A DNA stretch of 64,000 nucleotides from Tribonema minus (lineage: Eukaryota > Sar > Xanthophyceae > Tribonematales > Tribonemataceae). Shown here piece by piece: positions 3,674-62,863 of the stretch. Below the pieces are notes generated by a model. It made no database searches and had not been told where the DNA came from. It saw nothing but the letters and a program-made list of their open reading frames with translations. The position numbers and the translations under genes were made by a program. How positions within the stretch are numbered: the stretch's first letter is position 1; every line of letters starts with the position of its first letter. The DNA lies in the NCBI GenBank assembly GCA_017506865.1, contig JAFCMP010000048.1:62001-126000 (forward strand). Reading direction: 5' to 3'.

Positions 3674-4125
3674 CTCGCAGGCGGCGACCGTTGCGCTGCG
3701 CGCTGCGTGGCGCCCCGAGGCAGTTTGCGAGTGCAGTCCGTCGCGCGTTTGCAGGCACGTGAAGCTGATGGCAAACACAGAAGGCTTGAAGAAGGAGTGT
3801 TACGAGCTGCGAGGTGCTCGTGCAACTGCTCGCAGGCAGCGAGAGTTGAGCTGCACACGGCGCGGCGCGGCGTGCGGAGGCGATTTGCAACTTCCACAGC
3901 CCCTCAGGCGTTTGCCATGCTCCTGAACAAATTGAAGTACGCTCATCGCTCGCGGACCGCTTGCAGGCGGCGAACGATGAGCTGCACGCTGCGCGGTGCG
4001 CCGAGGCGATACGCAAGTATAGCCCCTCGGACATATGCCCTGGCACGATTCGCAACTGTAAGCTCTCAGACGCTCTCCATACTCTTGATGCTGAATACGC
4101 TCATGGCTCGAACCACCGCGCGCAG
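3674..4125 (+). repeat. Three upstream copies of the acceptor edge of kinase exon 1
   Basis: The real junction at 4121-4194 (CGCAG then GCGGCGAACGATGAGCT) is preceded by copies at 3674-3747, 3827-3890 and 3961-4033. Each starts with its own CAG and continues into recognisable exon sequence. The closest copy (3961) even keeps the reading AANDELHAARCAEAIRKYSP against the true AANDELHAAWRAKAIREYSP; the farthest is most degraded. Confidence 0.8.
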
Positions 4126-7100
4126 GCGGCGAACGATGAGCTTCACGCGGCGTGGCGCGCCAAGGCGATCCGCGAGTACAGCCCGTCGGACGCGGCGTCG
4201 TCGGGCGCGGGCCCGCGCACGGGCGACCTCGCGTGGAGCGCGCTGCTGCTGCGCTTCCGCCACGCTGAGGCGGACCGCGCGCACGCCGCGCACAAGGCCG
4301 CGTTCCGGCGCTACAACCTGCGCCTCATCTGCAACGTGCTCGCCGTCACGGAGGGCGTCGCGCTCGTCAAGAACGTCGCCTGCCTGGACTGGGTGCGTGC
4401 TCGTAGCGAGGCTGGAGTCTTGTGTACTGCGGGGTGTGTCGTGTGGTGCTCGGGTGTGGCGTGCTGCTTCGCATTCGCGCGTCGTTGCGTGCTGCAGCGC
4501 GCCTCTTGCTGCTACGAGACGACAGCTTCAGAAGTATCTGCAACATGCGCGTTGTCGCGCACAGGGATCGCGGTCATCAAGAACCTCGCCCGCTTGGAGC
4601 GGGTGCAAGCACACGAGTGTGTGCCCCGTCGCCCCCCCCCCTTCCAGTTGCTGAGCGCAGCGAGGTGAAGCGGCAGTGCTCAACTCGTGATGGCCGCGCG
4701 CGCGTCGGAAACTGTCCGCGTGTGCGTGCGTGCGTGTGTTCTGTCTGCACGGAACGACGAGCGCCCTGACGGCAGTGCTCAACGTTTTGTGGTATACCGA
4801 GCACCCCTGTGGCAGCCGCACGCATGTGCAGTGCAGTGCTGCGGCTCACTGTGCTCATCTTCACTGCAGACCCCAGCTTGCTGGCGGTTCCGTCGGCCTT
4901 CCGAATCGCGTAGTTGAGTGTACCACGCGAGTCGCGGCGGCGCTATGGAACAGTGCACCTATCAGCAGCAGCTGGCGACCATCTCCTCACTTGCTTCCGC
5001 CATGGGCGGTGAACGGCACGCGGACCGTTGGCTAAGGGTAGGATGAGGGTTAGCGCTGATCCTAACACTCGTTGTGTGCACTCATGGTCCTCAGCGTAAC
5101 GCAAGGACACGGATCCTCATGGGAGCGCACGTTAACCTGCCCGCGCCTAGGGTTGTTCGCAGCTGTGATGCTGCAGCACCCGTGATCGCGATGCTGCGCA
5201 CTTAACGTACGAAAACGCGCGGCGCACAACGCGTTATCCCCGCTGCTGCGGCGCCAGGCACAGGCAACAGCGGCGACGCGCACTCACGCCCGTCCGGCAC
5301 ACCGCGCCGCAGCGCCGCGCTACTGCCGTCTGCTGCGCCGCCAGCCCACGTCGCGCAGCCCCTAACCCTAGCTTCGAACGCAACCCTTAGCGCGGCGCCA
5401 ACACCTCACCTGGCCCTACCTAACCCTACCCCCACCCTACCACCGAACGCGCGCGCGCGTGTGCTTCGGGTCGGCATCGCGCAGCCCTCGCACTAGCCGT
5501 GCACGCAACCCTAAGAGCGGTGAGAGCGTAAAGCTCGCCACCGTGCCAGGAATGGACAAACCAAGGGACCCAAGCAGACACAAGACTCACGGCTAGTGCA
5601 TGTGTTGTTAGAAGAGAAGTGATCATTGAGAATCCAGGAGGCAAACATGAACAGCCACGTCAGTTCTCAACAGGACCCAACCTCAACATGAGCTGAGCTG
5701 TGCGCTGTCAAGCGGCGCCCGCACCGCTAACCCTAGGCCCTATTTTAGCCCTACTAACCCTACCACCGCAGGTCGGCGTCGCGCAGCCCTAATTTTAGCC
5801 CCAAACGCAACCCTCAGCACGGCGCCCGCACCTCATCGCTAACCCTAGCCCCTGCTAACCCTAGTCCTAACCCTAACCCTACCACCGCAGATCGGCGTCG
5901 CGCAGCTGGCCGCCGTCGTCGTCACGCTGCTGGCGGCGGGCAACTGCGCGCAGCGGCTGTCGGAGCGCGGCGTCGCGGCGGCGTGCGTGCTGCTGACAGC
6001 GCTGCTGCACGGCGTGTTCTTCGCGCTCATGGTCGCAGACGCCGCGGGGCGCGACCTGTGGACGGAGCTGCGGCAGGGCGTGACGCCGAACACGCTGTAC
6101 ACAACACTCATTATGGTGTTCGACTTCATGCTGGCGCCGTACTGGTTCACCAATGTGAGGGGGTGGTGCCGCGCGTGGCGGTGGATAACATATGTAGGTT
6201 TCTGCTTGCTCGCGACTCAAGCACGTTGGTTTTCTGCTCGCTCGCGACTCACGTAGTGTACTGTGTTAGCTTCTGCAGGGCGCCGCACCTGATGTGCGCT
6301 TCACAGTATGCTCTTGTTGGGCTTGATTCCGCTGCCGTTCTGGCTCATCACCGTGCAAAACGGCTGCTTTCGCGTTGAAAGCGGCTGCATCCACTTTGAG
6401 AGGGTCGCTCGCCTACCTCAGCATGACATTTACGGGGTTGCAGGCAACAACGCGAACTGCAGGTGGACACCTCAGAAGCGGGACACTGTACACATCGCGA
6501 CTGCTCAGGGTTTTGTTGCGTACTCATGACTCATGACGCGCGACGCTTAGCTCCCCAGCAGGCGTATTTCGCAAGCAGTACAGCATCTTCACCCATGCCG
6601 CAGCGCCGCGACCGCAGTCGATGCAGACCCTGGCCCACGTGCTGAAAGCGTGCTTTGCGTTTGCAACATTGCGCAGCTTCTTCAGCACAGGCTCCTTGAC
6701 GTACCAGGGCCTGCACAGGCAGCGCTCGCGTGGGTGAGCATGCAGCAACGTCTGCACTACCTAACTCTAACCCTAACCCTAAGTTGCTGGCCCGGTGCAG
6801 CAGCAGCAGCAGCGCTCACCTGAGTGCGCGAAGTGCCACCATATATACACACCACCACCACTACTCCCTGTGACCCCCCGCCCCCTCATGCCGGCACACG
6901 CGCACGTCAGCAGAATCCTGCCGCGCTCGCACCCCCGAAGGCACGGAGACGCACTGCGCTCTGCACACCGACTCTTGCGAAGAACTCATGCAGAGCCATT
7001 GCTATGCGAGCTGCGAGAAAGGTTGTTTCGAGCGTCTGCCCCAGGCGCCCGCAAGTCCCCCCCCCCCCCCCCCCCCCCCCGCGCGCGCGTGCGCACCTCA

Positions 7101-10100
7101 CTCAACGAATCGCCATTGCAGCGCCACTTCACCTGCGGCTCGCTCTGCCCTGGTGAACGCTCACGTGCCTCTGCCGCTGCCGCATGCGCTGCGCGCCATG
7201 ACACGTTGCTGAGGCATGCTGCCCCACTGTCACGCGACCGCAGGTGCTGATTGGCGCCCCCATATTGGTGGTAATGGGGCTGCAGATCCTCACGGACTTG
7301 GGGCTCGACAAGGTGCGCGCGCCGCGATCGCCCCTGCTGCCGCTGTCACCGTCACGTCATTATGTCGTGATCCTGTCTGTGGCCGACGTACAAAATCAGA
7401 CGCGAAAAACCAAACACACTTGCATGAAAGACGGGAATGTAAATACTGCCAGACTATAGAATCAAAATAGTATTGACACCAAAACATCGTATACAAAACG
7501 AGCGCTGCTGCCGCTGCAACCGCTGCCCCTGTTAAGCGCATGGCTTGGTTGCGTCGAATTGTGCATCAGCGCTGAGCTGAACATAGCGACGGCAGTGCAG
7601 CCGCGGCGGCGGCAAGTCCGATTGGCGCCGCTGCGCAAGGCATCTGCGCGCTTGCTGCCGCTGCTCTTATTGTGTCATCAAAGTGTTGGCAGAGCAGCAT
7701 CGCCCAGGTTAAAGCATTGGGCGGAAGCGCGTTCCCGAGTCAGCTAGTGGCCGCCGCAAGCACCCAGTAGCATGGAGAGCTGCGCGCAGACGCGCAGGCG
7801 TGCAACCAACGGCAGCGGCAGCGCACACGCTATCAACTGATAAGAAACAGAGAATCCTCGGTTTTCAAACACATGCTACGCAGCAGCGGTAGGGAGTGAC
7901 TTGCCACAGAGGCTGTACTCCCCCCCCTCAGCCCGACACTCCAACTTCAATGTCAGATGCATTAGCTTCAACTTCAACTGCACCGCGGCAGACGGAGGCG
8001 GCCCTGGAGGCGCTGCGGCTGCTGGCCATGGCCGCGGCCGTCGCGTACATGACGCACGCGTCGCTGCTGGAGCTCTTTGCGAGCCCCACGGAGGGCCTCC
8101 TCAAGGCGCTCGCGCTGGGCGTGCGCGAGGAGAAGGAGCAGTACATCTCGCAGGTGCGTCACCTCCCCCCCCTGTCACACTTCAACTATTAAGTTCAACG
8201 TAACGCGTCCTCAAGGCGCTCGTGCTGGGCGTGCGCGAGGAGAAGGAGCAGTACATATCGCAGGTGCGTCACCTCCCCTTTGTCAAACTTCAACTGTCAA
8301 GTTCAATGTACCGTCGTCAAGGCGCTCGCGCTGGGCGTGCGCGAGGAGAAGGAGCAGTACATCTCGCAGGTACGTCACACTTCAATGTCAACTTTAACCT
8401 GACAGTGCTGCCGGCGCAAAGCACACACTGCGTTCACCACCATCGCAGGGCGTGCAGTGGCGTTGCGGTGCTGGCAACGGTTTCGGTTTCAGGCCTTCGG
8501 CTCCAAGTCGTTGCTGCCGGCACACGCCCTGTGTTCATCGTCGTCGGTGTATTGTACAGTAGCATTGCACTGCCGGTGGGGGTATGCTTGGTCGGGCCCT
8601 GGATGACACAGACACGCGCAACAAAAATGTGCCAAAGCCGCACACAGGTCGCTTGGCGCACCAGCAATAGCTTCGTCCAGCATTGCCTATGGCTTGTTGC
8701 CTGGCTTGAGAGTTAACATAAACAGTGGCTATAGGCAGGAATGCGATTCGCTGTTTGGTGACGCTGTGCAGGCTGGCCAATACGTCTTGTTCAAGGACAG
8801 CGAGTCTCTCCCGTATGACTCAGCGCTCAGCGGCGCAGCGACGGCGCGGGCCTGTCACCTGCAGAAGTTCATGCAGGCTCCTGTTTGACACAGCCCTAAC
8901 CCTACCCCAGCGCTCAGCGGCGCAGGCGACGCGGGCATGTCACCGGCAGAAGTTCATGCAGGCTTCACCACCCCTCATTTTGCCTCTCCGACGCTTTGCT
9001 CACTTTATTGCGTGAGCACAGCGGTTCACATCTGCCCGCTGCGCCACGGCCGTTGCAGGTGGCGCACGACATTGGCACGCCGCTCACGACGTTCGCTCTG
9101 GGCCTGCAGCTCCTACGGGAGGATCCAGAGCTGACGCCGTCGATGCACCAGGTCCTAGACATGCAGGTCAGGAGTACTTGTCATTGAGACATTTTGGACT
9201 GTCACACGACATGTAGATTCCATGCAGCAAGCTTCAAGCTAGATACCATTTGTTTGGGCTTTTTTCGCGCCCGGAACGAGGATTGATAAAAAGTATTTGT
9301 GACGCATTGCCAGCAGGAATGTATGCGTACGCATATGCGCATCTGCGCGCATGCTTTGGAGTGCGTACCGTGGCGTATCCCCCACCGTGATTGCGTACGT
9401 ACATTCAAGAACATGCATGTTGTGTACATGCATGCATTGACACACATGCATACCTACGCGCACACGCTACATTCCTTTGTGCGTACATCCGTGGTACATT
9501 CTCGAGCACGCACAGTCATGCACGTGCACCAGAGTGCGCACCCCTGCGTGCATGTCGTCACCGCGCCTGCGCTGTTACTGCGTACATCAAGGTGTAAGCA
9601 GCCCAGACATGGCAGGCCTTAACTCCAAGGTCCACGGTAGGGTGTCGTACGCCTCACCCATGCCCCCCACGTGGCTGGCCGCGACGACGCGGTCGTTCGC
9701 AGCGTGCGCACCAACTGCCAGCGTTTGCCTCAGCGCTCACGCATGCGCTGCAGCGCGACAGTGCGGCGTTGAGTCCGATGTCCACTGCGCTGCCATCTCA
9801 CCCTAGCCGCGGCGTTCAACTTGTTGTGTGTCGTCGCCATGGCGGCACGCGCGCTGCCGCCAACGTGACAGTCTTTGCAACAACCTCGTCACGCCCGTGC
9901 GCCATCGCCATGTGCGCACGCGCGCCATTGCGACCTTCGCCATCGTGACGGCCTTCCCTCCTCGTACCGTGCCGGCATCAGCGCTCTACCACGCAGCGGC
10001 ACAGTGCGGTGGCCGCAGTGGCCCGAACGCTGCCGCTCGTGTTTGAAACACAATGTTAGCGCTCCGCTATGCGACAGCTCTTTTGTAGCACTGACGCCGT

Positions 10101-13100
10101 GCTGTCGCGTCGTTGCCCTTGACGCACGATGTCTCACGCGGGGTGTGCGCGCTAGGCGCGTCACAGCAGGATCGTACGTGAACACGTCAATATGCTCTGA
10201 ATGCTTTAGTATGCCTATGTCGCTGCTGAACCGCGCCACGGATCGTAGCGATGAACGCGCTGAACGCCGCTCTGTATGCTTCTCCTGTAGGACATTCCAT
10301 CGTTTCGTCTACCTGTTCACAGGGCCTCTTCCTTCGCATCTGCAGTTAGCTTAGGTTTGGGGGTGGCGTTCGAAGGGGCCTGATGGGTTGTGTACTCGTG
10401 CACCAAGTCGTGACGCGCGATGCCTCACGTGCCATTGGTCGATGCTGACCTCGCCACATACGGTAGCAATGGACGCGCTGAGTGCGATGCGGAGGCAGCT
10501 TGCGATGGCGGTTGGTGTGTGCGCTTGCAGTCCGCACGCGCACAGAGCGGTTGGTCGCGACGGACGCTTACTTGGCGCGACGTTATCTTGTCTCATTGAG
10601 TCGCTCACAGACCGACGTTCCCCGCATATCCACAGACGGTGGCGATGGACGCGCTGAATGCGATGCGGCGGCAAGCCCTCGACGCCGTGGCCTTCTCCAA
10701 CGGCCACCGCCCGCGCCCCGTGCTGACCCGCGGCAGCGTGCGCGCGGTTACGTTCAGGTGCGTCACAGGGGGCACTTGCCGGTGAAAACTTGAATTTCGT
10801 TCGCGATCAGGTGCATCCTGGCGTGGCGCGTGCGTGGTTGTCACGTCACAGCAGGTCCTTGCGTGAATTGCAGCATCTCATAAACATGTTTGTGGGGCCA
10901 GTGCCTGCTCTGTGAGCACGTCACAGCAGACACTTGCGTGAATGCTTTGACATGTTCAAGCTATGGTGCATGACGCGGTGTGTGCCTTGAAGGCACGTCC
11001 GCTGCCGTCAGTATGCATTTGTGCTGACACCTCTTGTCGTGCGGAATTGCGAGCTCTCGCTTCTCATCGCCATGCTCCCGGGGTTGTAACCCCCCCCGCT
11101 CCCCTTCCTCCCACCTGTCTTCCCGCTTTGTGCCCCAGATGCATGCAGATCATGCGCGCAGATCTCGCGAGAGGCTGGGACTCCACTCCGCACCAGGCCG
11201 CGGCGGCGGACCCGGCGGCGGCAGCGGAAGACGGCGCTCTCGCCGACGCCAACGCCGCTGCCGCCGCCGCCGCCGCCGCGCCGATAGAGTGGCACTGGCA
11301 CGTGGAGGATGACGTGAAGCGGTGCATCGTGACCGACTTTGCGTGGGTACAGGTGACGCCCCCTACTTGAAGTTCACGAGGCCTAGTTTTTGGTGCAGTT
11401 TTTGAAGGTATCGTGGCCTTGTGACACCACGCCATGAGGTGCGCGTGAACGTTTTGAAGAGGCAAGAGCGAATGGCACCCGCCTCGAACGGTGCACGCAG
11501 CCCGACCGCATGGCTGTTAGGGTTATGATTCGGGTTGGGGTTAGGCCTGTTAGCCCTGCAGTCAGCAGCGTGGCGTGCGCGCCTTCTGCGCGCACGGCCT
11601 GCTGATGCGCAGCAGCACCGTAGCCTGGAGTGTCACCCTGCGCAGGCGCTGCCTGTATGCACTTGAACTATATCATCCCTGCTGCGAGACCGCGCAGCGC
11701 TCTGCGGCGAAGCACCGCGCAACGGCATCAGGACACCGACTGCGCGCTGGTCGCACAGCCAGTGTGGCATGTGACCCATCGATAGAGATGGAGAGAAGTG
11801 GCCTTCTTAGCAGGCGCTGCACACACTCACACACATCGCGAGGTCTCTGGTCACATGCAGCAGCATGGCCGGCACAGAATGTCCAGTCGGGCCCAATCGC
11901 TGCCAGCTGCGGTCTACTTTTGGGGGCCAAGAAAATCTTCAACCCTAACCCTGACCCTAGCTCTAATCTGATCCAATGTGCAGATTGTGCTAGAGTCCCT
12001 GCCCCTAAATCTAGGGTTTCTCCCGCGCCGCCCCACGCGGATGCAGGCCGTGCTGAATGCTGCTGCACCCCCTGACCGGCGCTACGGACCTGCCTAACCT
12101 CAGCGTCCACCCTGACCTGGGGGCTTGCCGCCAGCCTTAACCTCAGGCTTTCTCGCTCACTGGCCTAACCTCATTGTCCACCCCTGACCTTAGTCATCGA
12201 TTGCCTCCAACGCTCGCCTCAGGCTTGCGCTCTCACCGCACCGTGTTGCAGCGCTGCCTAACCTTAGGGCTTGCCTCCAGCCCCAACCCCAGGCCTCCTC
12301 TCTCACCGCACCACACATATGCAGGACATGCTGCTGCACCTCCTCACCAATGCTCTAGCAGCCCTGACTTTGAGGGGGTCAGCCTCAACCTTAACGCCTA
12401 GGGTTAGGGTTAGGATTAGGGTTAGGATTAGGTTAGGATTAGGGTTAGGGTTAGTGTCAGGGTTAGGGTTAGGCACCAGCAGCCCTGATATTACGGGTCA
12501 GCCGCGACCTCAGCGCTAGCCCTAACCCCACCTTTCCTCTCTCGCCGTGCCGCACCACACACGTGCAGGACATGCTGAACGCTGCTGCATCTCCTTACCA
12601 GCGCTGCGGCTCTGCCTCACCTCAGCGTCCGCCCCTGACCTTACGGCTCGTCTCCTGCACTCACGTTAGGCCTCCCTCTCTCACACCGCACCACGCGTCC
12701 GCAGGACGCATGCTGCTGCACCACCTCATGAGTGCTCCAGCAGCCCTGACCCTAGAGTTCAGCCTTTACCTCAGCGCTCGCCCCACGCGCACGCGCAGCA
12801 CATGCTGCTGCTCCTCCTCACCAATGCTCCAGCAGCCCTAACCTTAGCCTCAACCTTAACGCTTAGGGTTAGGGTTAGGGTTAGGGTTAGTATTAGGGTT
12901 AGGGTTAGGGTCAGGCTCTAGCAGACCCCTAACCTTGGGATTCAGCCTTTACCTCAGCGCGTGCCTCCAGCCGTAACCCCCTCCTTTCCTCTCTTGCCGC
13001 ACCGCGCCACGCATCCGCAGGACATGCTGCTGCACCTCCTCACCAATGCCAAGCAGCACGCGACGGGCACGCGTAGGGTGGTCACCATGGTGGCCGTTGC

Positions 13101-14345: not shown

Positions 14346-14377
<32 letters not shown>

Positions 14378-17300
14378 GCATTAGCCCGGCGGCGCAAGCG
14401 GCGGCGCGCTTCTCGTCGACCATGCACGCTGCGTGGGACGGAATCAACGGCGGCGGCAGCGTGCACTCGCCAGCGGTCACGTCGAGGGAGGATGAGCCCA
14501 GCGGTGGCATGCTGTGCGCAGGGGTGGAGCCGCAGCTGGTGTTCCCGCACGTGCCGTCGCCTTCATCTGTCAGCGCTGCTGCCGCTGCTGCTGCTGCTGC
14601 GGCTGCTGGTGTCGTGACCGATGCCGATGCGGCAGCAGCAGCAGCGCCCTCGGCACGAGAACCGGCAGCGCCGCCGCTGCCGCCGCCGCCAGCCATGCCG
14701 CCATCACATTCTGCAGCGGTGGCAGCAGCAGGCGCAGCAGCAGCCGTGGAGGCGGCGGCGGCAGCCGCTGTGCCTCCACAGCCGTCAGCCGCGCAACTGC
14801 TGCCGCGACCGCCGCCCATGGCAACGGCCGCGGCGGCACCGCCACCCCCATCACCAGGCGCATCGGCTGCACCAGCGCCCGGGGCATCACCTGTGTGCTG
14901 CAGCGGCGGCAGCGGCGGCGTTCCGGAGCCGGCGCTGCCGCCGCCGCTGCGCGCTGTGCCCGAGGCCGCGGCGGCGTGGTGGCTGCCGCGGCCGCGGTCG
15001 GCAGAAGCGCGCCACGCTAGCGTAAGCGCCAGCGACGCGCTGTCGCCTCCGTCGCCGTCGGCAGCGCTCCACGGCGCCGCGGCGATGCCGCAGCAACACA
15101 GCACCGGCAGCGTGATGGACAGCAATGGCGGCGGCGGCGGCGGCGGCGACGTCGCGCGGAGGTGCGTGTGAGGTTGTGCCGCAGGCCGCTCGCTTTCGCG
15201 GCGCCACTGGATTATTGCTGCGTCGCTACGTTTTGGTGAGCTGTGAAACCTAGATGGTGAACCCTAGTTGGTGCGCGCGCCTGCTGCACCGCAGCACCGC
15301 CATCGTCCATATGGCGGCACTGCAGCGCGCAAGGATGCTGTGACTCCACTTCACGTGCCACAAGTGCCGTCGCCCGCCTTTGCCCAGCGCAGGAGCCGCC
15401 CCTGAGTGGCAGCGCTCACGTTTTAGGAACGCGGTGCGTGCAACTGCCGCAGCTCCAACGCTGAGCTGCCGTGGCAGCAGCGGTGCTCCGCTGCTACGAC
15501 CGCCGTCCTCGCCTGCTGCTGTGAGTGCAGCTCGCGCATCCGCCGCGACATCGACCGTGCTTCCACGCGTGCAGGAGCACAGCTCAGCGCTCGTGCGCGC
15601 AGCGCTCGCCTGCCATGAACCGTACACCCCTCGCCCAGAACTGCCGCCGCTGCCGTGCACACGTGCAGCAGCGCCAGCGCCGCCGCCGCCGCTGCCGACG
15701 TCCGACACGCTGACCGCACGTCGCCTGCCTCTGTTGGCCGCGTTTGCACAGCTCAGCGCCCCTATTTGCGGTCCTCACGCGCGGCGACCGCGCGCTGCCG
15801 CGCTCCGCCCTTACCCGTCCCCATGCCGGCAGCCCTCACGTGCGATCAACCGCGCGCCTGTGCCCCGCGCTTATCCATACACCCCCCCACCCTGCTGCCG
15901 CGCGCAGGAGCGCCGCGGCGGCGGCGCCAGCGCGCGCGCGGCCGGCGGCGGCCGGTGAGGAGCGCCGCCTGATACTGGTGGTGGACGACGAGTCGACGAT
16001 CCGCAAGTTCCTGGCGCGCGTGCTGGAGAAGCGCGGCTACGGCGTCGTGCAGGCGGGCGACGGCGTGCAGGCGCTCGAGGCGATGCGCGCGTGCGCCTTC
16101 ACCGCGGTGAGCAGCCCACTCGCTGCGGCTGCCGTACCACTACCTCTGAACTGTGACCATGTCACTAAACCTAGATCCTCGCCACCATGCCAACCCTAGC
16201 GAGGCCATGCGCGCGTGCGCCTCCACCGCGGTGAGCGCGGGGGAGGGGGCTGCATGCATGCCTTGCTCCGGCTGCCCTACCCCTAGCTCTGGAGTGTGAC
16301 TGTATTTCTGACCCTAGACTTTCGCCACAATCCCAACCCTAACGAGGCGATGTGCGCGTGCGCGTTCACTGCAGTGAGCACGGGGGGGGGCTGTGTGGAT
16401 GCCCTGCCGCGGCTGCCCAACCCCTAACTCTAAAACTGTGACCATACCTCTGATACTAGGCCGTCGCCGCATTCTTAACCTTGATGAGGCGATGCGCGCG
16501 TGCGCCCTCGCCGCAGTGAGCAGAGGGGAGGGGGGGGGGGGGGGCGGGCCAAGCGGGCCGCATGGATGCATCACCCGCATTGTTTCCAGCCCCGGACTTT
16601 TGCTCGAATTGCCCCAAATCTAGCCCTCAATTGTGACCGGATGTGTTGCCCCGCTTGCCCCAGCCTTGGCCCCAAACCGTGACCTCAACCCTAACCATAA
16701 ATGCTCCCCACAATCCTAAGCGTACATGGGCAATTTCAACACGTTGAGTGTTCATGCGCGCGTGGCAGCACTCATCGATCCGCTTGCGGCTCTCCGCAAC
16801 GCGCTGGCGGCAGTGCGACTTCGCCCCGCTTGGCGCGCCTGCTGCATGCATACAGCACACCGACTGCTCACTGTCAACGGGCCCTGGTCTCACACACCGC
16901 AGCCGGGCGTTTGTGGCTAACCCTCCGACCCCAACCTCAACCCCGTGTGACGCGCGCACGTGCAGCCAGCGCAGCCGCTCTCCCACCTTGGGGCTAGGGT
17001 TAGGGTCAGATGTGCCGTCCACACGTGTGGACCCGCACACTTTGAGAATTCCTTAGGGTTAGGGTTAGGGTTAGGGTTAGGGCCATGCTCTCTGTACCGC
17101 GACCCTTTGTTGGTCACTGGGCAGATTCTGAAGTGGATTAGCACATCCAGCAGCGGTCCCGCTTGCTCCCTTGCCGGCTTCTCTCGCGATCCACTCAGAC
17201 TGCAGTACTAACGTGTCACCGTGTCGTCCCTCGACGCGCGCCACGTGCGCAGGTGTTGCTCGCTTACTGTACACCTTGCACGAACGGCATCGACCCTCCG

Positions 17301-19032: not shown

Positions 19033-19064
<32 letters not shown>

Positions 19065-19250: not shown

Positions 19251-19259
19251 ACCCGTGAG

Positions 19260-29200: not shown

Positions 29201-32200
29201 CTGTGCGAGCTGGGGCGATGGCGCTGCTGCCATTCGAGCGCCGCTAGTGGCAGCGCTCAGCACGCCAAGGCACACCTCAAATCTCAACTTCAACTCCATG
29301 ATGTCGACGAATGCACACTATCCACATGCGCGCTAGCCCAGCTCTCGCTCACGCTGGCAACGGTGAATGACCGTCGGTGTGCAGTGCTCTGCAAGAGTGG
29401 GCGCCGCAGGGAGTGTCCCTGCCGCTGCGCGTGCTGGCGTGATGGCGCTGCTGCTAGTGGCAGCGCTCACCATGCCGTGATGCACCTCAATCTTAAGTTT
29501 AGCTGGCGCCATGGCGCCGCTGTTAGTGGCAGCGCGCACCATGCTGCGATGCACAATATCAAGTTCAACTCCTTGATATTGATGAATACCTCAAGTTGAA
29601 CTCGTTGACTCAAGTTGAACTCGTTGATATTGATCGATACATAAAATCCGTGCGCAGGGCTGCAAGAGGGTGGGCACCGAAGGGAGTGCTGCTGCCCGTG
29701 CGCGTGCTGGCGCGATGGCGCGATGCACCTCAACCTCAACTTTAACGCCCTGATGTCGAATGAATGCACAAAATCCGTGTGCAGGGCTGCAAGAGTGGGC
29801 GCCGGAGGGGCTGCTGCTACCCGTGCGAGTGCTGGCATCGCTGGCGGCAGTGCTCATCATGCTGCACGCGGAGGACGTGGCGGAGCTGCAATCTCAACTT
29901 CAACTTCTTGATGCTGATGGCTACCTAACTTAAACTCATTGGTATTGATCGTTAGATACATATATCCGTATGCTGCAGGGCTGCAAGAGTGGGCGCCGGA
30001 GGGAGTGCTGCTCCCCGTGCGCGCGCTGGCGTCGCTGGCGGCAGTGCTCATCGTGCTGCGCGCGGAGGACGTGGCGGAGAGCCGCGCGTTCCACTTTGTG
30101 CTCTCCGCAGTCGTGGGGTGTGCGATAGCGGCGCTGGTGGTGGGCTACGTCGCGTTCAATCTCGGGCGCAAGGTGCGTTTCGGCAGTGTTGAGAAGCGGG
30201 GACTGAGGTGTTGCTGCCGCTGGCGCGATGCTGTTAGCAGAACGTGTGCTTCATCAGCGGCCACAGAGAGCCTTTTTGCAGCGCCGCGCCTGCAGCACCG
30301 CCGGACCCCAAACAGAGGGCGCTTGGTGCTGCATGCTACGCCAGCAACAGTAGCGGCATGCTGTTCAGAGGTGCTGCCATGCAAAAGCATGGAGGCACGA
30401 CAGCGGCCAGCGCCAGCAGCGCGCTTTGTTCGGGCGGTTTTACATGCTGAAATTCCGAAAATGCCTTTTGCTGTCGCCGTGCCGCTGCAGCTGGCGGACG
30501 CGGTGCCGGGCGTGGCGTTCGCACGCTCAGCGTGGGTTGTGTTTTTCGGCGGTTTCACATTCTGAAACTACAATTCTGCTGTTGCCATGCCGCTGGCGAA
30601 CTCGATGCCATGCGCAGCATTTGCACGCTACGCAGCGTGTGTTGTCCGGCAATTTCAGATTCTGAAACTGCTGTTGTGCTGCTGTGCCGCTGCAGTTGGC
30701 GGACGCGGTGCCGGGCGTGGCAGTCGCACGCTACGCAGCATCTTTGCTTTGGCAGTTTCACATTCTGAAACTTAGCAGATTCACATTCTGAAACTGCAAT
30801 TTGCTGTCGCCTCCTATTGCCGCTGCAGCTGGCGGACGCGGTGCCGGGCGTCGCCTTTGCGCGCTACGCGGGCATGGCGGCGCTGCTGTCGGCGCCGCTG
30901 GGCGCTGCCGCGTATGCGGCCACCATCCACAGGGCCGCTGCACTGCTGCTGGACGTGAGCCTCGCGTTCTGGCACTTTGGGTGAGTAACGCCGCTTGCAG
31001 GAGCAGTGTTTGAGCTTTTGACGATACGCCGTGCCTCGCCGAATGGCAACGTTTGGCGACACCCGGCTGTTGGACCGTGGCCGTAACGTCAAGAATCGTT
31101 GACGGACCCTACCATCAACCCTAGCACAGGGTGGCAGCGCCTGATGTCAGCCACACATTTTGGCACTTGGGGGAGCCATGGCGCGAGGGTTGAGTAGTTG
31201 CAGCAGTTCCTCTACGGACTCGCGCTTGTGCCCTTAGGCCAGGTTTTCGATCAGCGCTGACCAGCTATTGCGGCGTTGCCTGGCGCCTCGCTGCTCATCA
31301 TCATGAGCTGGGCATCTCCTTCAGGTGCTATGAGCAAGGGTTAGGGTTAGGGTTAGGGTTAGCTGTCGCGCGTCCGCAGGCGCGGTTTCGGCATTTGCGC
31401 ACTACATGTCAGGCCGTGTCTACTACCACGGTCATTTTCACTGCCATGCCGGATGCTGCGTCGGACGGTGGGCACTTGGAAAGGACAGAAAGCACACATC
31501 GCTCAACTGGCGGCGCTCACGCGCGGCGCCCTCTCCGCTCGTGGCCTGCGGCAACGCTCAGCACATGCGGCGCGTGCCTCGGCAATATCGCGTGCAATGT
31601 GCGTGCAACGCCGGCAGCCGCGCTCGCTCTCACTGCCACACCCCCTTTCTTCACAATCAACTGCAAAGAGGATGATACCCGCAAGAGTACGCGTGTACAG
31701 TGCGGCTGTCATCGGATCATTGTCACGTGCGCGCTGACGCATGCTCGCTGGTCCCCCCCCCCCCTCCCCCCCGCAGCGCCTTTGGCGTGGCGTGGCTCGG
31801 CAAGCTGTACTTTGCGGGCAGTGCTCTAGCGGGCGTGCTGGTAACGTGGCGCTGGGGCCTGCTGCGCGAGCCCGCGGAGGGCGGCGGGTGGCGCGCATTG
31901 CTCAATGCGCAGGCGAACGTGCAGCGCGCCGTTACCGCGGTGGGACTCGCGCTGCTGCTCGCGAGGTGAGGCGCGCCGCAGCCATGCGCGTCAATGTTTG
32001 TACTTGAAGTACATAACATGAGTAGGTATGGCGTCGCCGCGCTCGGCCTCACGCTGCTGCTCGCGAGGCGAGTCGCGCAGCAGCGTGCGCTTCAAGCACA
32101 TGCTTCTACCTCAAATTTGAAGTACCCAAGTGTATGGGGGTAGGTATGGCGTCACCGCGGTCGGCCTCGCGCTGCTGCTCGCGAGGTGCGCCGCGCTGTC

Positions 32201-48945: not shown

Positions 48946-49197
48946 CGGTCTAGAATCAGCCTCAAGCTGATCTTGTGCTGCGGTTCCGGCATGGACAATG
49001 ATTCGCCAGAGACCCTGATTTAGGCACCGTTGCGCGAGACCCCCTCAAACCCCATCCTTCAACTTCAACTCTCCGTCTAGCTGTTGCAGGCGAGGATTGT
49101 CCTTCCCACGACCACTGGTTGGCTTGCATCTGAGGTCGGTCTGACGTGCCGCCAGCAGCGCAGCCCACTGGACCCGCTTCTTTGGCTCTGAACAAAC
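48946..49197. promoter_or_regulatory. Likely shared 5' region of the LRRC46-like and YchJ-type genes
   Basis: The two genes diverge. The missing first exon of the LRRC46-like gene should lie here or just to the left, so the intergenic space is at most about 250 bases. CATCCTTCAACTTCAACTCT is at 49053. Confidence 0.35.
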
Positions 49198-53861: not shown

Positions 53862-56800
53862 TCAGCCGCTGGCGCGTTTGTCCGACGGCTGCAGCGCGAT
53901 CAGCAGCGCGGAGATGTCGTCCCTGCAGGCGAGATGAGAAAGAATAGAGAGCTTGATGAAGGAGTGGCCGGAATGCTACCAGAGACTGGCTCTGTGTATG
54001 CATGACAGGATGCAAGCAGTACCACCACTGTCGGCGGTGACAATTGCACGTGAAGATTTCTTGTGGGGCACAAGCTCTGCACAGCGACAAACGCCGTCGC
54101 ACCGTCATCAGAAGATTGTTGGTGACCAGCACCAGAGGCCGTCGCGACGCCGCTGTGCCGCGAGGCGTAACCTCAGCGTGCACTTACGACTCGGCCAGCC
54201 AAACACACACACACGGGCATTGCAGCCAATGCTCGAGCGGCGAGGGTCCCTGTCCCCGGCGTTACGCAGACGCCAGCGCGAACGCGCTTGCGCCGACTGC
54301 CACCAACAGCGCGCCAGCATCAAAGACTCGCACAGCAGCAGCTGGCGCGCAGGGCTCCCGCGCACGCAGTCCCACGCGTGCCGGCACCCCGACCGGACAG
54401 TGCCGCACCTGTAGACGCCGACGCGGTGCGCCCACCGCGCGTTCGCCAGCGACACGAGCGCCTCGCACGCGCCGGCAAGCGCCGCCGCCGCCCCCACCCC
54501 CGTCCCCCCCTGCCCCCCCCCCTGCCGTCCCCCCCCCGCCCCCCGCGCCATCTCCGCATGCACCAGCTCCACCGCCTCGTCCGTGGACACGAATGTCCAG
54601 ATGCCGTCGCTCGCGAGCAGCAGGAAGAGGTCCGTGCCGCGCGTGAGGCGCCACGCCGTGACGACGGGGTCCGGCACGACGCCGACGCGCTTGACGGCGA
54701 GGTCGCCGAGCGAGCGCGACATGGCGAGACCAACCATGGTCTGCTGCGCGTCCAGCCTGGCGTGCGGGCGGGGAGGCGGCGGCGCGTGCGCTGTGAGAAG
54801 TCGTGCGCTCGTGAGAAGCTGGCGCCTGTGTCAGCCGCAGCGATGTGTGGTGGCGGCGGCGCGAGCGCGCATGAGAAGTGTGGCGGCTGTGCTGGCCGCA
54901 GCGACGTGTGGTAGCGCTTGTGAGAAGCCGGCTGCTGTGTCAGCCACAGCAATGTGTGGTAACGGCGATGCGTGCGCTCGTAAGCAGTCGACCGTGTCAG
55001 CCGCAGCGATGTGTGGTAGCAGCGATGCGTGCGCTGGTGAGCAGTTGCCCGTGTCAGCCTCGGCTATGTGTGCGGCAGCAGCGACAGACGAGTATGCCCA
55101 GCAGAAGCTGACGGTGTCGGCGTCAGCGACGCGTGCGACAGCCGCAGCACACGCGCTTACAAGCAGCTGCTGCGTAGCCTCACGAGGAGAGCGACATGGC
55201 GAGCCCCACTGCGTGTGCGATGACGCGTAATTGTGCGCGTATGCGCGCATCATCAGTCATGCAGCTGAGAAATGTCATCACGGGCACGGTGTCCGCAGTA
55301 ATGTCAGAGCGCCCGCCACAATTCATTTGGTGAGGGGGGTACACGAAGTTCTGGATGTGCGCGTTTCGTACAAAACAGACATGTATTGATCTGGCGTAGA
55401 CGCCGCTTCTGCAGTCTTGATCACGAAGGAGACGTTGTGAGCTACGCCTGATAGCATGCTGGGGCACACACGTCCTGTTGCTCACCATACTGTGCGCTGC
55501 TGAGTGATGACTGCAGCGGCCGTCTCGCAGTGGGCGCAGGCTCACTACGCACTCCCGGTCCTCTGACACACATCAATAGCATCATCTTCGCACGTAGAAA
55601 GGCTCCAGCACATTTCGATGGCAGATCAAGCACACAGTTCATCCTGCCTCAGTAATGAACACAATCTCTGAAGCACTTGTGTACTTCAATGTGTACTTCA
55701 ATTCAAGTGCTTATGAATTTATGTGTACGGCCCGCTCGTTCATGCTGCTGAGCTGACTGCAGCGCAGGGTTGACAGTGCCCCGGCATGCTTACTTTCCGC
55801 TCCCGCTGCCCTAAGACATCAGGCGGCTTGACATACACGTGCGCTCCAGCAGTGAACCTTATCATGGCCATGAGTACCCAGGGCTGCTTGCTCCGTTCTC
55901 AGACACTACCAAGCACTGCAAAACATCACCGTAAACACCCCTCCCTGGCTCACCAAGATGAGCTGCTGAGCCCCCGTATGTGCTTCGTACTCTGGCACCC
56001 TTGCACTGCTGAGCGCTGCCGCAGAGGCCCTGTACATGCATACCCCCCCCCCTTCCTTACTCACCACACTCTGCTGCTGAGCCCCGGCTGCGGCGGCGGG
56101 CTCACAAACCCCCCCATGCCCAGTATCCGCTCCCTCTCCTCGGGGACGTCCGGCGTCTGGTCCTCCGTGAGTTGCACAGACTTCACTTCCTCCTCCCCCC
56201 CCCCTCCAAGGTGCGCCGCCGCGACCGCCCGCGAGTCCCCGCAGTTGGCCACCCACATGAGATCGCCGCGCACCAGCGCCACAACCGCCGTGGTGCCGCC
56301 AAACACAGCCTGGACCTTCACATATGGGGATGGGGCAGAGGGGGGTTGGAGGGGGTGCAGGGTTGGGAGGGGGGGAGGAAGTGGGGTGAGGGGGGGAGGG
56401 GGGACATGCGGGTGCTGCGCTTGCGCACGCTGGCCGATTGCATCATCAACAGACGGCGCACGTGGTGCACCTGCACAGGCATTACACAACTACTACAGCA
56501 ACTGAGCTTGTGCCGTCTCAATGCTGCCTGTTAACTGCATCTGCGCCCGCTGATGGCAGCTGCGCAAGGCAGAAACTGCGCAACCTTCGTCAGCCTGGCC
56601 GGTTGTGACAGTGCTCACCTCTGGTTGCTCGAGCAGCATGTCATTCACGCCCACGAACGTCTGCATGCGCGAAGCGGGCAGAACAGCGCAGACGTCCTGG
56701 GTCAGCACTTGAGCAAGTGTGCTGCAGCATCAGGCTTCAGCTCAATGACAGGTCACTCTAGTACGGTGCACAACAGCTGCAGCACGAGGTGCGTAAATGG

Positions 56801-57917: not shown

Positions 57918-58089
57918 GCTGCTTGAGCCCTTGACCCTGCCAGGACGACTGCAAAGCCGCCCGCATTGCTAGTTGTGTTGTCTCTCCAGGCTGGTGTGAA
58001 GTTGGAATAAAGAGGAAAAGCTCCTTTTTTTTGATTCGAGGTACACACACGACACGGCGAGCGCTCCGGAGCTAAGAGCAGCTGCGGGC
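57918..58089. promoter_or_regulatory. Shared promoter of PP2C and alpha/beta hydrolase
   Basis: The starts diverge with 172 bases between them. TTTTTTTTGATTC lies at 58024 and no TATA box is obvious. Confidence 0.5.
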
Positions 58090-61000
58090 ATGCGCGCCAT
58101 TAGCCTGATATTGGCCCTATGCCTCGTGCACAGCTGCTGGTGCTGGGCGCTCCGGACTCCTCTGGGAACCGCACTGCGATCTAATGCCGCTGCTGCAGCT
58201 GCGAGATCCCATGCATGGAGCAGAGGACTGTCCATGGTGGCGCCAGCAGGCGATGTGTCCGAAAGGTACGTCACATGCAATGATATGGAGCATTGCCACC
58301 ACAGAATCCATCGCTGATTACGTGATAGCTGAACAACCTCAACTTGCTGCATCATGATGGGATCCTGCACAGGGCACTTGACATCAAAGTGGGGCCACTC
58401 AAGAGGGAGTGCCTGCCTCTCACGACGGGCGTATCCATGGAGGTGCTGTCGCAGCTGCCGTCCAGGCGCTCGGACCCGCGCGCGAAGCATCTCCCACCTC
58501 TGCTTTTCATACATGGATCTTATCACGGAGCCTGGTGCTGGGCTGAGCATTGGATGCCATTCCTCGCTGGCAAAGGCTACGAAACGTACTCCATCAGCTT
58601 GCGCGGTACATCTGGCACACCAGCGCCTGCTGCTGCGGAGGGCGAGGTAAGAGATCTTGCGCTGTCCTCATGCTCTCACGACATCAGCACGTTCCAACAG
58701 AGCTGCGTAAGCCGTGTTGAGGGTGAACTGCCACGGTACTGCACTGCATGCGTTGCTGTGAGTGCCCCTGCTTCGTAACATCAGTCGCGCCCGCCACAGC
58801 CTGCATGGTGCGCAGATTACTGCCCTCTCAGCGCTGCGCCAGCCACCACTGCCGTGCACGACAAAGAATGCGCAAGCCTCCAGCGGCTTGCGTACCATTC
58901 CAAGCCAACAGCTGGCGACCAGTGCCACAGCCCCATCACATCACTCACTGTCTCATGCTGCTGCAGTGAGTCATGCACCACATCAGTACTTCATGCCTGC
59001 AGCCGCCTGTGAAGACTACCGTTGCTTGGTAACCGGTCACAAAGAAAGCGCGACACCAGCCCCATCGTCCGTCCAGAGCATCTCGCCCGTCAACCCACTC
59101 CCCCGTGCCTGCGGCGGCCGCTGACCATCACCAATGCATCGCAACAGCTCACAAGCCCCCACCAGCACAAGTCTCACACGCCAACCCAACCGCCCGCGCC
59201 TCCTGCAGCGGCCGGCAACGATGGCATGGTGACAGCTCACATGCCCATAGTCAATAGTAGCGTCTCGCCCACCGGCCTCATCGCCCCTCTGCCTGCAGCC
59301 GCCGGTGAAAAGCGTAAAGGCGTCGGAGCACGTGGCGGACCTGCGCGCGTTCATGGATGCGGCGCTGCCCGGGCGCCGCCCGCTGCTGGTGGCGCACAGC
59401 TTCGGCGGCCTCATCGTCATGCAGGTGTGTGGGGGGGTAGGGGGTAGGTAGGCTTGCTGCATGGTTGAAGCCTCAGCGCTCAACGCTGATGGCGCGCACT
59501 TCGGCGGCCTCATCGCCATGCAGCTGTGGGGGGGGTACGGGTAGGTAGGCTTGCTGCACGCCTGACTGAATTGTGGAAGCCTCAGCATTTGACACTGGTG
59601 GCTGGTCAGTAAGCTTATAGCGCGCCTGACTGCATGGTGGAAGCCTCAACGCTCAGCACTCGAGACGTGCACAGCCTCGGCGGCCTTCTCATCATGAGAT
59701 GGGGGGGTAGGGGTAGGTAGACTACCTATAGGGGGCATGTAGGGCACCTGAAACGCCTGACAGATTGTTTTTCGAACCTCAACGCTCAGCGCTAGTGGCG
59801 CGCAGCTTCGGCGGCCTCGACGTCACGCACTAGGGGTAAGAATGTGTGCGCCTGACAGGCAGTCATGAGGCCTGAACGGTCAACGTCAAGGGTTGGCTGT
59901 CGGAGCGCGCGGGAGCAGAATGTCGGTTTTCGGCACAGCGCGCTGAGCAGCAGCCGCTGATAAACAAGAGCATCTTCTTGGACTCTAAGTTGGCGCGACG
60001 CTAGGAGGCCTTCCGATGTTTGCTGTCCAGTCAGAAAACTTTTTTGCCAAGTTCACCGCTGTGCACTGTGCAATGCAGCAGCCCAGTGGGCCGACAATAC
60101 TGCAGCCCCACTTCATCTGTACAACCTGGGTTTCAGCCACGTGTCGACGCTGCAGTCCCTCCGCGTGCCGAGCCCGTTCCAAGCGCCGCTCCCCGCATGT
60201 AACCCCCTAGACCACATGCCTCAACGCTCAGCTCTCTTGCGACCGCCGCCACAGCTCATGGCCGCCGCAGCTCATGGCGGCGCTACCCGTTTCACTCGCC
60301 CCGCATCGCATGTAAACCCCTAGACTACATGCCTCAACTACATGCTTCAACGCTCAGCTCTCACGCAACTGCCGCCGCAGCTCATGGCGGCGCTGCCGGC
60401 CCCATTCCATGCGCTGCACACCGGACGTATGTAGCCCCCTAGACTTCATGCCTCAACGCTCGGTTCTCTCGCGCGACCGCCCTCGCAGCTCATGGCGCAT
60501 CGCACGAAAACCCCTAGACTACATGCCTCAACGCTCAGCTCTCGCGCAACTGCTGCAAAGTAACCACCTACTTGAAGTAGACTACATGACTCAACGCTCA
60601 GGTCTCTCGCGCGACCGCCCTCGCAGCTCATGGCAGCGCTGCCGGACCCGTTCCACGCGCCTCGCATTGCGAGTATCCCCTCCGCGTGCCGAACCCGTTC
60701 CGCGCGCCGCGCATCGCACCCAACTCCCTAGACTACATGCCTTAACATGCTCAGCTCTCTGTGACCGCCGTCGCAGCTCATGGCGCATCGCACGAAAAAC
60801 CCCTAGACTACATGCCTCAACGCTCAGCTCTCGCGCAACTGCTGCAAAGTAACCACCTACTTGAAGTAGACCACATGCCTCAACGCTCAGCTCTCGCGCG
60901 ACCGCCGTCGCAGCTCTTGGCAGCGCTGCCGGATCCGCGAGCGGCGCTGTCCGGCGCCGCCGTGTTCTGCTCCGTGCCGCCCTCCGGCAACGGGCCGATG

Positions 61001-62863
61001 GCGGGGCGGTTCCTGCGGGAGCGGCCCATAGCGGCCATCAAGATACTGGTGGGGTTCGTGCTGAAGCTGGCGACGCAGTGGCAGTGGCTCGCGCGCGACC
61101 TGTTCTTTGACAGGGCGCTGCCGCAGGAGGACCTATCACGGTGAGCGCTGCTGCTGCCCCGTTCGCTGCCGCAGAAATCTGCTGCCGCACATTGTGCGGA
61201 AACCTGCTGCGACGCTCGTTCTGTGGAAACCCTGCTTGGTGACGCGCGGGTCAGGGTTTTGGGGGAGAGGGCGCGGCGGTTTTTACGTTTTTGTGTGGTG
61301 CACATGAGCTCTGACGCAGGCGGTGCTCGCAGCAAGGTTCAACGCCATTTTGACCGAAACGTAATTGCTCGCCTGAGACATGAGTCGGAGCAGGACCCAA
61401 CCTAGCCAAAATTCTGCCCTAAGTGAAGCTCCGCACCGCCTCACAGCCATATGCCAGCGTGCACTGACGGAAGCATTTCAAATGTGAGGCTTCCCGCATC
61501 GCGGCGGTGTGCGATGCACATGCGGTGCTGTACTTGTGAGCCACATACTTGAAGTTGATGTTTGCGTGGCTGCGAAATGCGGTACGCAGCGGCTTGCCGC
61601 ACGCATGCTGCATGGACACCCACAATAGAGTGTTTGCATGCCCATTGTACTGGACTGGTGCTTGTTGAGTATGCAGAGATCAATGGCGTGATCTGGCCTG
61701 ATGAGCATCGGCCACTTCAAACTGCAAGACAACACGCACGCTTGGCAACTTGAGCGCTGCGCGCAGCATATGCGGCCTGCCAGCGGTGACACTGGTGGCA
61801 AGCAAAACTGATTGAAATCCACCTTCACATCTTCAGAACGTTCAAGTCTTCGTCGAATGCCCTCATACCACATCACACTATACAATCTTGTATCAATCAG
61901 TATATGAATGTATACCATCTCATTTGCGCTGGTGACAGGTACATGAAGCACTTCAAGGCGGACTCGCAGATTGGTCTGGACCTGAAGGACCTGAGCCCGG
62001 TGCTGCCCAGCAAGAGCGCTGATGCGGATGGGCGTGCGCCGTGGCTTGCACTGGCGCCGCCAATCATGGTCGCCGGCGCCGAGAAAGACTACATTGTGGA
62101 TGAACGGTGCGTGCTTGATGCACAGTATAGTAAGACACAGCTGCACGTTGTAGTAAGACACAGCCTTGCAGTAGTCAAATGACCTTGGTGTGGTGTGCAG
62201 CGTGTGGAAATGTGCTCCGACTTTATGGTTCCGGGAAGAAGCATTTCCTGGTCGGTGAGTGGGATACGCATGTGGCGCATACCTACAGGAAGTACACATA
62301 CTGGACCATTTGTAGGCACGAGTTTCATTGCGCTGTCACCCTCGCACTTTCTGATTTTATCAAGCAGTCAGTCTTGAGCTGCAGGGTAACATTAGTATAC
62401 TTGAAGTATGCCTCATCGGCAGCCACCTGGCATGCACTTGTTGATGCATTGCATGACAGCGCCCGGCGCCAATGTCCCTTGTGCACAGGCTGGCTGTAAG
62501 CAGCTGCGTCACTGCATAATGCGTCGCTACAGAGTCACACACGGCTGGGTTCACTGTGACCGACAGACTCTCGAGCGCCACCCCCACACACCTGCTAGGG
62601 CACAGCAGCCGCCATTGTTTGTGAAATTTTCAGCCCACATGATGCTGAGCACCACAGACTGCTTGTCCCCTGCCGCCGTGCCCGCGCGCCGCAGAGGCGT
62701 GATGGACACTGCCGAGTTCATGGGCACGCAGCCCGAGATGATACCACTCGCGCCGCACGACGTCATGCTCGGCCCGCAGTACGTGCTGGGCGTATCGCGC
62801 CTGCTGTCGTGGCTCGAGTCCCAGGAGTTCTCACGGACGGCGCCCGCCGCGCCGGCGCGCTGA
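58090..62863 (+). CDS. Secreted or plastid-targeted alpha/beta hydrolase
   Basis: Six exons in consistent phase: 58090-58265, 58373-58646, 59299-59424, 60914-61140, 61939-62106, 62695-62863, about 345 residues. It begins with a signal peptide (MRAISLILALCLVHSCWCWA) and a Ser/Arg/Ala-rich transit-like part. The fold follows: LPPLLFIHGSYHGAWCWAEH (oxyanion-hole HG), GYETYSISLRGTSGTP, VAHSFGGLIVMQ with the nucleophile Ser, PPIMVAGAEKDYIVDE with the catalytic Asp, and MIPLAPHDVMLGP with the His. The complete triad shows that it should be an active esterase or lipase. A plastid location is likely from the signal-plus-transit layout but no Phe cleavage motif is clear, so secretion is possible. Introns 2 to 4 carry ladders of junction copies. 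Confidence 0.9.
58995..59220 (+). repeat. Acceptor-edge copies before hydrolase exon 3
   Basis: The real acceptor region CTGCCTGCAG then CCGCCGGTGAAAAGCG (59289-59314) has counterparts at 58995-59018 (ATGCCTGCAG CCGCCTGTGAAGAC), 59104-59127 (CCTGCGGCGGCCGCTGACC) and 59193-59216 (CTCCTGCAG CGGCCGGCAACG). Each is preceded by a CATC-rich stretch. Confidence 0.75.
59490..59840 (+). repeat. Three donor-edge copies after hydrolase exon 3
   Basis: CTTCGGCGGCCTCATCGTCA (exon) with donor and GGGGGGGTAGGGGGTAGGTAGG recurs at 59496-59545, 59676-59725 and 59803-59840. The nucleophile elbow codons are kept in part (HFGG, LGG, SFGG). The first copy reads ATGCAGCTGTGGGG, i.e. donor GT lost to CT. Confidence 0.9.
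60140..60830 (+). repeat. Six or more acceptor-edge copies before hydrolase exon 4
   Basis: The real edge (GCGACCGCCGTCGCAG then CTCTTGGCAGCGCTGCCGG, exon from 60914) is preceded by copies with CGCAG CTCATGGC at about 60253, 60378, 60486, 60628 and 60774, plus partial ones. Each is preceded by ACTACATGCCTCAACGCTCA. Some extend to GCAGCGCTGCCGGACCCGTT. Unit length 90-150 bases. Confidence 0.93.

What the first reader, a model, noticed from the sequence alone, without database searches (positions are those of the whole stretch)
3674..62700. Introns built from ladders of copied splice junctions
At no fewer than 15 junctions in six genes (kinase, bS21, NEMP, EF-hand, PP2C, hydrolase) the intron contains one to six copies of the adjoining exon edge together with its splice site. 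Donor-side copies lie downstream and acceptor-side copies lie upstream, i.e. always inside the intron. The copy nearest the real exon is usually the longest and least changed, so the duplications look serial, with new copies made at the junction and older ones pushed away. I know of no described intron-growth mode that matches this. It would explain large introns in an otherwise compact genome and create many decoy splice sites.
Basis: seen in the sequence. Interest (0 to 1): 0.93.

Follow-up and report, generated by a model that had tools for sequence, protein, structure and literature searches.

The report
Introns lengthened by copied exon edges
In this yellow-green alga many introns have grown because a short piece spanning the border between exon and intron was copied again and again into the intron, leaving a ladder of look-alike splice sites beside the real one; this is a common way for introns to get longer in the genes sampled, and we did not find it described.

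Summary
The DNA is Tribonema minus (Xanthophyceae). In 42 introns of 17 chaperonin and proteasome loci, fixed by homology and not chosen for ladders, 28 of 84 splice junctions have a copy of the exon edge (20 bp or more) in their own intron. Controls: inverted introns 2 of 84, shuffled 0 of 84, foreign introns 0 of 408, exon interiors 1 of 22, wrong-side intron 1 of 42. Median spacing is 152 bp; ladder introns have median 940 bp, others 523, ladder subtracted 498. One of two cpn60 paralogues has ladders at five junctions, the other at one. The nearest copy is usually least changed (18 of 21), not usually longest (12 of 21). Arrays cross junctions more often than random placement predicts (19 of 26 against 8.9), more weakly with exons masked (12 of 22 against 6.8, P 0.013). 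Most likely: recurrent tandem duplication near junctions, kept and renewed because the real exon edge is under selection. Whether splicing directs the duplication is open.

The parts
3674..4191 (+). acceptor ladder: real exon start 4126, copies about 159, 290 and 445 bp upstream (exon parts 57/66, 27/34, 49/63)
4327..4606 (+). donor copy: real intron start 4393, one copy 209 bp downstream (exon 50/66)
5713..5906 (+). acceptor copy: real exon start 5891, copy 119 bp upstream in CCCTAA-rich intron; only 15/16 exon bases
8095..8378 (+). donor ladder: real intron start 8154, copies 110 and 216 bp downstream (exon 56/59, 55/56)
10242..10673 (+). acceptor ladder: real exon start 10636, copies 176 and 394 bp upstream (exon 34/38, 21/26)
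16076..16534 (+). donor ladder in an exon with a sub-threshold response-regulator match: real intron start 16107, copies at 124, 267 and 409 bp
17579..18113 (+). donor ladder in an exon with a response-regulator match: real intron start 17638, copies at 132, 301 and 477 bp (the last does not span)
30433..30869 (+). acceptor ladder, same gene: real exon start 30829, copies at 30696, 30593 and 30491
31930..32196 (+). donor ladder, same gene: real intron start 31966, copies at 32068 and 32186
32317..32518 (+). acceptor copy, same gene: real exon start 32494, copy at 32365 (exon 25/25)
55900..56075 (-). PP2C donor 56064, one short copy 111 bp downstream (exon 16/21)
59385..59829 (+). donor ladder of the alpha/beta hydrolase-like gene: real intron start 59425, copies at 100, 275 and 406 bp (the last does not span)
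60157..60937 (+). acceptor ladder taken as the other end of the same intron: real exon start 60914, repeated units upstream whose exon parts are short (8 to 24 bp)

Best explanation
Introns of Tribonema minus lengthen by recurrent local tandem duplication of segments of roughly 100-200 bp that straddle a splice junction (part exon, part intron). The exon-proximal copy stays in use and the others become intron. Shown: the ladders, their side, spacing, additivity to intron length, some excess at junctions, and gene-specific presence in one of two paralogues. Inferred: (1) new units arise by slippage, template switching or unequal exchange; (2) only duplications that leave the coding frame and the exon-proximal site intact survive, which gives the inward polarity; (3) because the real exon edge and its splice signal are under purifying selection, they keep a long near-identical partner for further unequal exchange and gene conversion, so arrays at junctions are renewed while arrays inside introns decay. 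Step 3 is my explanation for the exon parts of copies being better preserved than their flanking intron parts.
For: 28 of 84 junctions with copies against 0 of 408 foreign introns, 0 of 84 shuffled, 2 of 84 inverted, 1 of 22 exon interiors; own side 13 of 42, wrong side 1 of 42. Array clusters cross junctions in 19 of 26 (expected 8.9). In the 14 introns of 900 bp or more, repeat coverage is 0.51-0.57 within 300 bp of a junction and 0.20 beyond 450 bp; in 14,499 bp of the window that I provisionally took as intergenic it is 0.04. Ladder introns median 940 bp (21), others 523 (21), ladder removed 498; spacing quartiles 126, 152, 180 bp. Distal ends of copies lie at ordinary exon positions. Copy against copy within 22 ladders: exon part 0.815, flanking 40 bp of intron 0.590 (baseline 0.471), exon higher in 22 of 22. 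Mismatch by codon position 0.075, 0.071, 0.153, as expected if copies drift freely and the real exon changes only synonymously. GT kept in 30 of 38 donor copies and AG in 39 of 44 acceptor copies, about as well as two exon bases would be. Cpn60 paralogues L049 and L050 share exons, but ladders are at five junctions of L050 and one of L049.
Against: The junction excess is only about twofold and P 0.013 when exons are masked and crossing placements allowed (12 of 22 against 6.8), so random tandem duplication explains a good part. Over all 42 introns the coverage gradient is weak: 0.28, 0.27, 0.37, 0.36, 0.29, 0.20 from 0-50 bp to beyond 450 bp, and with exons masked 0.17, 0.21, 0.31, 0.34, 0.29, 0.18, i.e. 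not highest at the junction itself. 100 kb of unannotated DNA has coverage 0.105, so arrays are not only in sampled introns. Conversion was not observed directly. Exon parts were used to find the copies, which biases their identity upward. A slight synonymous excess (positions 1+2 to position 3, 153 to 183; 1 stop in 1,209 codons), no stop among 342 mismatches, and the L050 exon-4 and exon-2 copies, which differ from the real exon mostly at third positions, hint that some copies are constrained. Gene ends, where selection also meets unconstrained DNA, show few ladders: 1 of 10 stop ends (a weak match of about 23 bp, flanks of 282-389 bp) and 0 of 9 start candidates with an ATG; too few and too short to decide, but anchoring by selection alone would predict some.
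Confidence: 0.55

Rival explanations
1. Tandem duplications of about 150 bp hit introns at random. Because introns without ladders are only about 500 bp, many units straddle a junction by chance, and these stay visible longer because one copy is conserved. Nothing is special about splice junctions.
For: Expected crossing under random placement is already 8.9 of 26 or 6.8 of 22. Exon breakpoints look arbitrary. Exon part 0.897 against intron part 0.707 identity in 39 junction-spanning pairs shows that visibility is better on the exon side. Over all 42 introns the coverage gradient is weak.
Against: Some excess remains with exons masked (P 0.013). Coverage falls with distance from the junction in long introns and is 0.04 in provisional intergenic DNA, where a random process should leave arrays too. 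Intronic copy-copy pairs have better preserved exon parts (22 of 22 ladders), which neutral decay does not predict.
Confidence: 0.25
2. The machinery of splicing or transcription makes splice junctions fragile, and duplications are born there preferentially (junction-targeted intron growth).
For: Ladders at both donors (13 of 42) and acceptors (15 of 42); excess at junctions; gradient in long introns; few or none at start and stop codons.
Confidence: 0.2
3. The copies are themselves selected, as decoy or alternative splice sites or as alternative partial exons that regulate splicing or expression; the ladder is a functional device.
For: Exon parts preserved beyond flanking intron; one stop in 1,209 codons and slight synonymous excess; L050 exon 4 and exon 2 copies differ mostly at third positions; most copies keep GT or AG.
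Against: Pooled codon-position pattern is about 1:1:2, as for free drift of the copies. GT and AG are kept about as well as exon bases, not better. The distal ends of copies are mostly not splice-like, so most are not complete exons. Ladders are absent from 21 of 42 introns and from most junctions of a paralogue. Some spacings, such as 110 and 124 bp, are not multiples of three.
Confidence: 0.13
4. Introner-type transposons or Rogers-type intron creation made these introns.
For: Both leave repeated sequence in or at introns (PMC9860276, PMC3443670; passages).
Against: Units of different sampled genes are not alike apart from the cpn60 paralogues and a few short matches; donor and acceptor windows of the same intron are alike in 0 of 42.
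Confidence: 0.03

Closest known systems
[quoted passage not shown] Hellsten et al. 2011; Gao and Lynch 2009), as described in passages of PMC3443670 and PMC4974935
   Same: Local tandem duplication within a gene, including splice signals, changes exon-intron structure. PMC4974935 describes a duplicated intron-exon structure in potato and mentions in passing an 83-bp duplication inside an intron.
   Different: There a new intron is created, in Rogers' form between duplicated AGGT sites. Here an existing intron is lengthened, repeatedly, at either end, with no change seen in the coding sequence; no donor-acceptor similarity in 42 introns.
Introners (PMC9860276, passages read)
   Same: Large effect on introns across a genome; found in several aquatic lineages.
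   Different: Introners are families of similar introns spread through the genome. Here the units are derived from their own junction.
Minisatellites or tandem arrays with concerted evolution (general knowledge)
   Same: Head-to-tail units of about 100-200 bp, with shared breakpoints in many ladders.
   Different: Anchored at a constrained exon edge; exon parts stay alike while intron parts diverge; some ladders have copy-specific breakpoints.
Splicing decoys and cryptic exons (general knowledge)
   Same: Extra splice-site-like sequence in introns.
   Different: Use or regulatory effect untested here; the copies arise by duplication of the neighbouring junction.

Membership tests
[quoted passage not shown]
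   0 of 42 introns
[quoted passage not shown]
   junction-spanning head-to-tail copies
[quoted passage not shown]
   no related eukaryote DNA was at hand; the cpn60 paralogues appear to share several exon borders
Introners | families of similar sequences in many introns of different genes | tested here: not met
   search among the window and L043-L060 found paralogue exons and a few short matches only; not a genome-wide test
Introners | short target-site duplications or terminal inverted repeats | not tested
   no element ends defined
Tandem array with concerted evolution | head-to-tail copies at regular spacing | tested here: met
   spacing quartiles 126, 152, 180 bp for 81 copies; regular within some ladders, loose in others
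Tandem array with concerted evolution | homogenisation among copies | tested here: inconclusive
   exon parts homogeneous, intron parts not (22 of 22 ladders); conversion not distinguished from selection
Functional splicing decoys | copies spliced or affecting splicing | not testable with these tools
   no RNA reads; public CCT-theta and CCT-eta proteins agree with the exon-proximal sites

The most novel reading that the evidence does not exclude
Splice junctions are duplication hotspots: something linked to splicing or transcription repeatedly duplicates the DNA around donors and acceptors. In this lineage introns therefore grow mainly from their ends by stacking copies of their own borders, with the living exon acting as template that keeps the newest copies fresh. 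This would be an intron-growth mode distinct from transposon insertion, from Rogers-type intron creation and from random expansion.
Probability: 0.25. Interest if true: 0.9.

Novelty: new variant of a known kind. Interest (0 to 1): 0.74.

Why it matters
Intron lengthening is usually put down to transposons and unspecific insertions (general knowledge). Here growth can be read copy by copy, with the conserved exon as ruler, and about 30% of the sampled intron sequence lies inside such ladders. They load genes with good splice-site copies that the cell must ignore, which makes the alga a natural test of how the exon-proximal site is chosen. The paralogue pair with many and with few ladders, and any strain or allele comparison, would make the birth of such copies directly observable.

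Tried and rejected
A home-made gene finder split the DNA into thousands of false exons and was dropped; introns were then fixed by homology. The profile was misregistered at gapped copies and was replaced. The d0 rows are self-overlap and are ignored, so its line '84 of 84' means nothing. The 34-bp intron comparison had a shuffled baseline of 0.73 and was replaced. In one search the third copy of exon 4 was cut out of register (0.19 identity) and the frames given for exons 3 and 5 were wrong; only the other exon 4 rows (0.93-0.95) and exon 2 are used. In one search the L050 exon 4 donor was set two bases late (5632; GT is at 5630). A haptophyte origin was my first guess and was wrong. Gene 3' flanks to test ladders at stop codons could not be fetched. 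Kinase loci that look like haplotypes (L007, L009, L030, L019) were of no further use: one self-repeat in L007, none in L009 or L030.

Rows dropped before counts: eight adjacent-exon pairs of the chaperonin genes without a safe intron, one proteasome pair (L059), and two exon hits that I judged to be intronic copies (L045 4115, L047 5817), removed by hand before the introns were solved; the L047 model was afterwards confirmed by the public protein, the L045 one was not checked. Two chaperonin contigs (C51, C544) and several proteasome loci were not fetched; the ten proteasome loci fetched were those with two or more neighbouring exon hits. The 28-of-84 count uses word size 5, E 1e-3 and an exon part of 20 bp or more; the stricter junction-spanning count is 17 of 42 introns.

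Full report
WHAT WAS CHECKED. Reading the sequence and aligning junctions to their own introns confirms this.

ORGANISM. The window is G000:C48:62001-126000 of a 158-Mb, 554-contig assembly. Relatives of the PP2C protein include many stramenopiles. My spliced CCT-eta from L043 (470 aa) and CCT-theta from L047 (497 aa) match public Tribonema minus proteins at 100%, as the tool rounds it, over 100% of the query, on records of 1,106,895 and 1,271,169 bases, the lengths of C235 and C135. The first residue of the L043 query was read across the exon start and differs. T. minus is a xanthophyte. These matches support eleven of my intron calls: five in L043, where no junction-spanning copy with 20 or more exon bases was found, and six in L047, which is rich in ladders. 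As far as a protein can show it, the public L047 model uses the exon-proximal site at every ladder junction. That the annotation rests on RNA is my recollection, not checked.

READER-INDEPENDENT SAMPLE. Introns were defined from exon-by-exon matches to chaperonin (PF00118) and proteasome (PF00227) families, with splice sites, frame and profile continuity: 30 introns in 8 chaperonin loci and 12 in 9 of 10 proteasome loci. 17 of 42 have a junction-spanning pair at E 1e-3. With a more sensitive junction search, 28 of 84 junctions (13 of 42 donors, 15 of 42 acceptors) have one to eight copies. Controls: inverted 2 of 84, shuffled 0 of 84, foreign introns 0 of 408, exon interior 1 of 22, opposite intron 1 of 42 against 13 of 42 for the own intron.

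ANATOMY. For 81 copies of window and sample together, median spacing is 152 bp (quartiles 126 and 180) and median exon part 52 bp (quartiles 37 and 63, query limited to 130). The distal ends of copies are mostly ordinary exon positions, identical among copies of some ladders and different in others. Units of different sampled genes are unrelated apart from paralogues and a few short matches. Donor and acceptor windows of the same intron are alike in 0 of 42. Ladder introns are longer (median 940 against 523, 21 each, P 0.0005), and the excess is the ladder itself (498 left); 9,960 of 33,328 intron bases lie between a real junction and its outermost copy.

PLACEMENT. Of 26 array clusters, 19 cross a junction against 8.9 expected for uniform placement that may cross (P 5e-6). 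Because a conserved exon copy stays visible longer, I masked exons: 12 of 22 arrays abut a junction, against 1.3 if arrays must lie inside the intron and 6.8 if they may cross (P 0.013). The last figure is the fair one. In the 14 introns of 900 bp or more, coverage declines with distance from the junction (0.53, 0.51, 0.57, 0.51, 0.36, 0.20 from 0-50 to beyond 450 bp; masked 0.32, 0.42, 0.52, 0.51, 0.35, 0.18). Over all 42 introns the gradient is weak (0.28, 0.27, 0.37, 0.36, 0.29, 0.20; masked 0.17, 0.21, 0.31, 0.34, 0.29, 0.18). Provisional intergenic DNA of the window has 0.04, 100 kb of unannotated DNA 0.105, and the sampled introns together 0.30.

DIVERGENCE. In 39 spanning pairs the exon part is 0.897 identical and the intron part 0.707. 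In 82 exactly mapped copies exon identity is flat near 0.89, the first six intron bases about 0.80, then a steep fall, part of which is due to gaps. Copy against copy, both intronic, exon parts are 0.815 and intron parts 0.590 (baseline 0.471), exon higher in 22 of 22 ladders. Neutral decay predicts near equality there, so exon parts are either reset from the exon (conversion or rebirth) or selected. Codon positions differ 0.075, 0.071, 0.153, the 1:1:2 expected for drifting copies, with a slight synonymous excess and one stop in 1,209 codons. I favour resetting but cannot exclude selection on some copies, notably L050 exon 4, where 21 of 26 differences in four copies are at third positions.

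PARALOGUES. The cpn60 genes L049 (matched exons within about 4.1 kb) and L050 (about 8.4 kb) share exons at 76-93% DNA identity. By the matches of L049 exons, L050 has ladders at five junctions: exon 2 acceptor, donors of exons 3, 4 and 5, and the acceptor before 7523. L049 has one clear self-repeat, at the exon 5 donor, and one weak one (E 0.006). Ladders are therefore gained or lost gene by gene.

LITERATURE. Ten searches found tandem-duplication intron gain and introners (passages read) but, in titles and abstract starts, no serial junction copying. Only open-licence papers are held, so absence in print is not shown.

VERDICT. The mechanism is partly inferred; junction targeting is possible but unproven.

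Noticed in passing
window 12399-12473, 12863-12915, 17053-17082, 31337-31362 and CCCTAA-rich 5360-5900: Telomere-like TTAGGG/CCCTAA runs lie in stretches taken as introns.
   Followed up: no
L049 and L050: Two cpn60 paralogues share exons but differ about twofold in length, with many ladders in one and one in the other; a natural pair for dating ladder growth.
   Followed up: partly
L050 5630-6290: Four copies of the last 120 bp of exon 4 are separated by spacers of about 44-48 bp that begin with GT; most are preceded by AG, so they look exon-like, and they differ from the real exon mostly at third codon positions.
   Followed up: partly
L007, L009, L019, L030: Kinase loci on different contigs are 95 to 99.8% identical: haplotigs or recent segmental duplicates that would allow allele comparison.
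   Followed up: partly
L031 (C334:714136) and L032 (C112:516888): Short rbcL-like fragments in nuclear contigs, probably plastid DNA insertions; each reads one TGA.
   Followed up: no
window 54802-55072 (-): A 57-bp tandem array in the PP2C intron close to, but not including, the acceptor 54756.
   Followed up: partly
e.g. L050 5634-5678, L047 around 5900-5990: Words like ACTTCAACTTTGAAGTT recur by eye in introns of unrelated genes; not counted.
   Followed up: no
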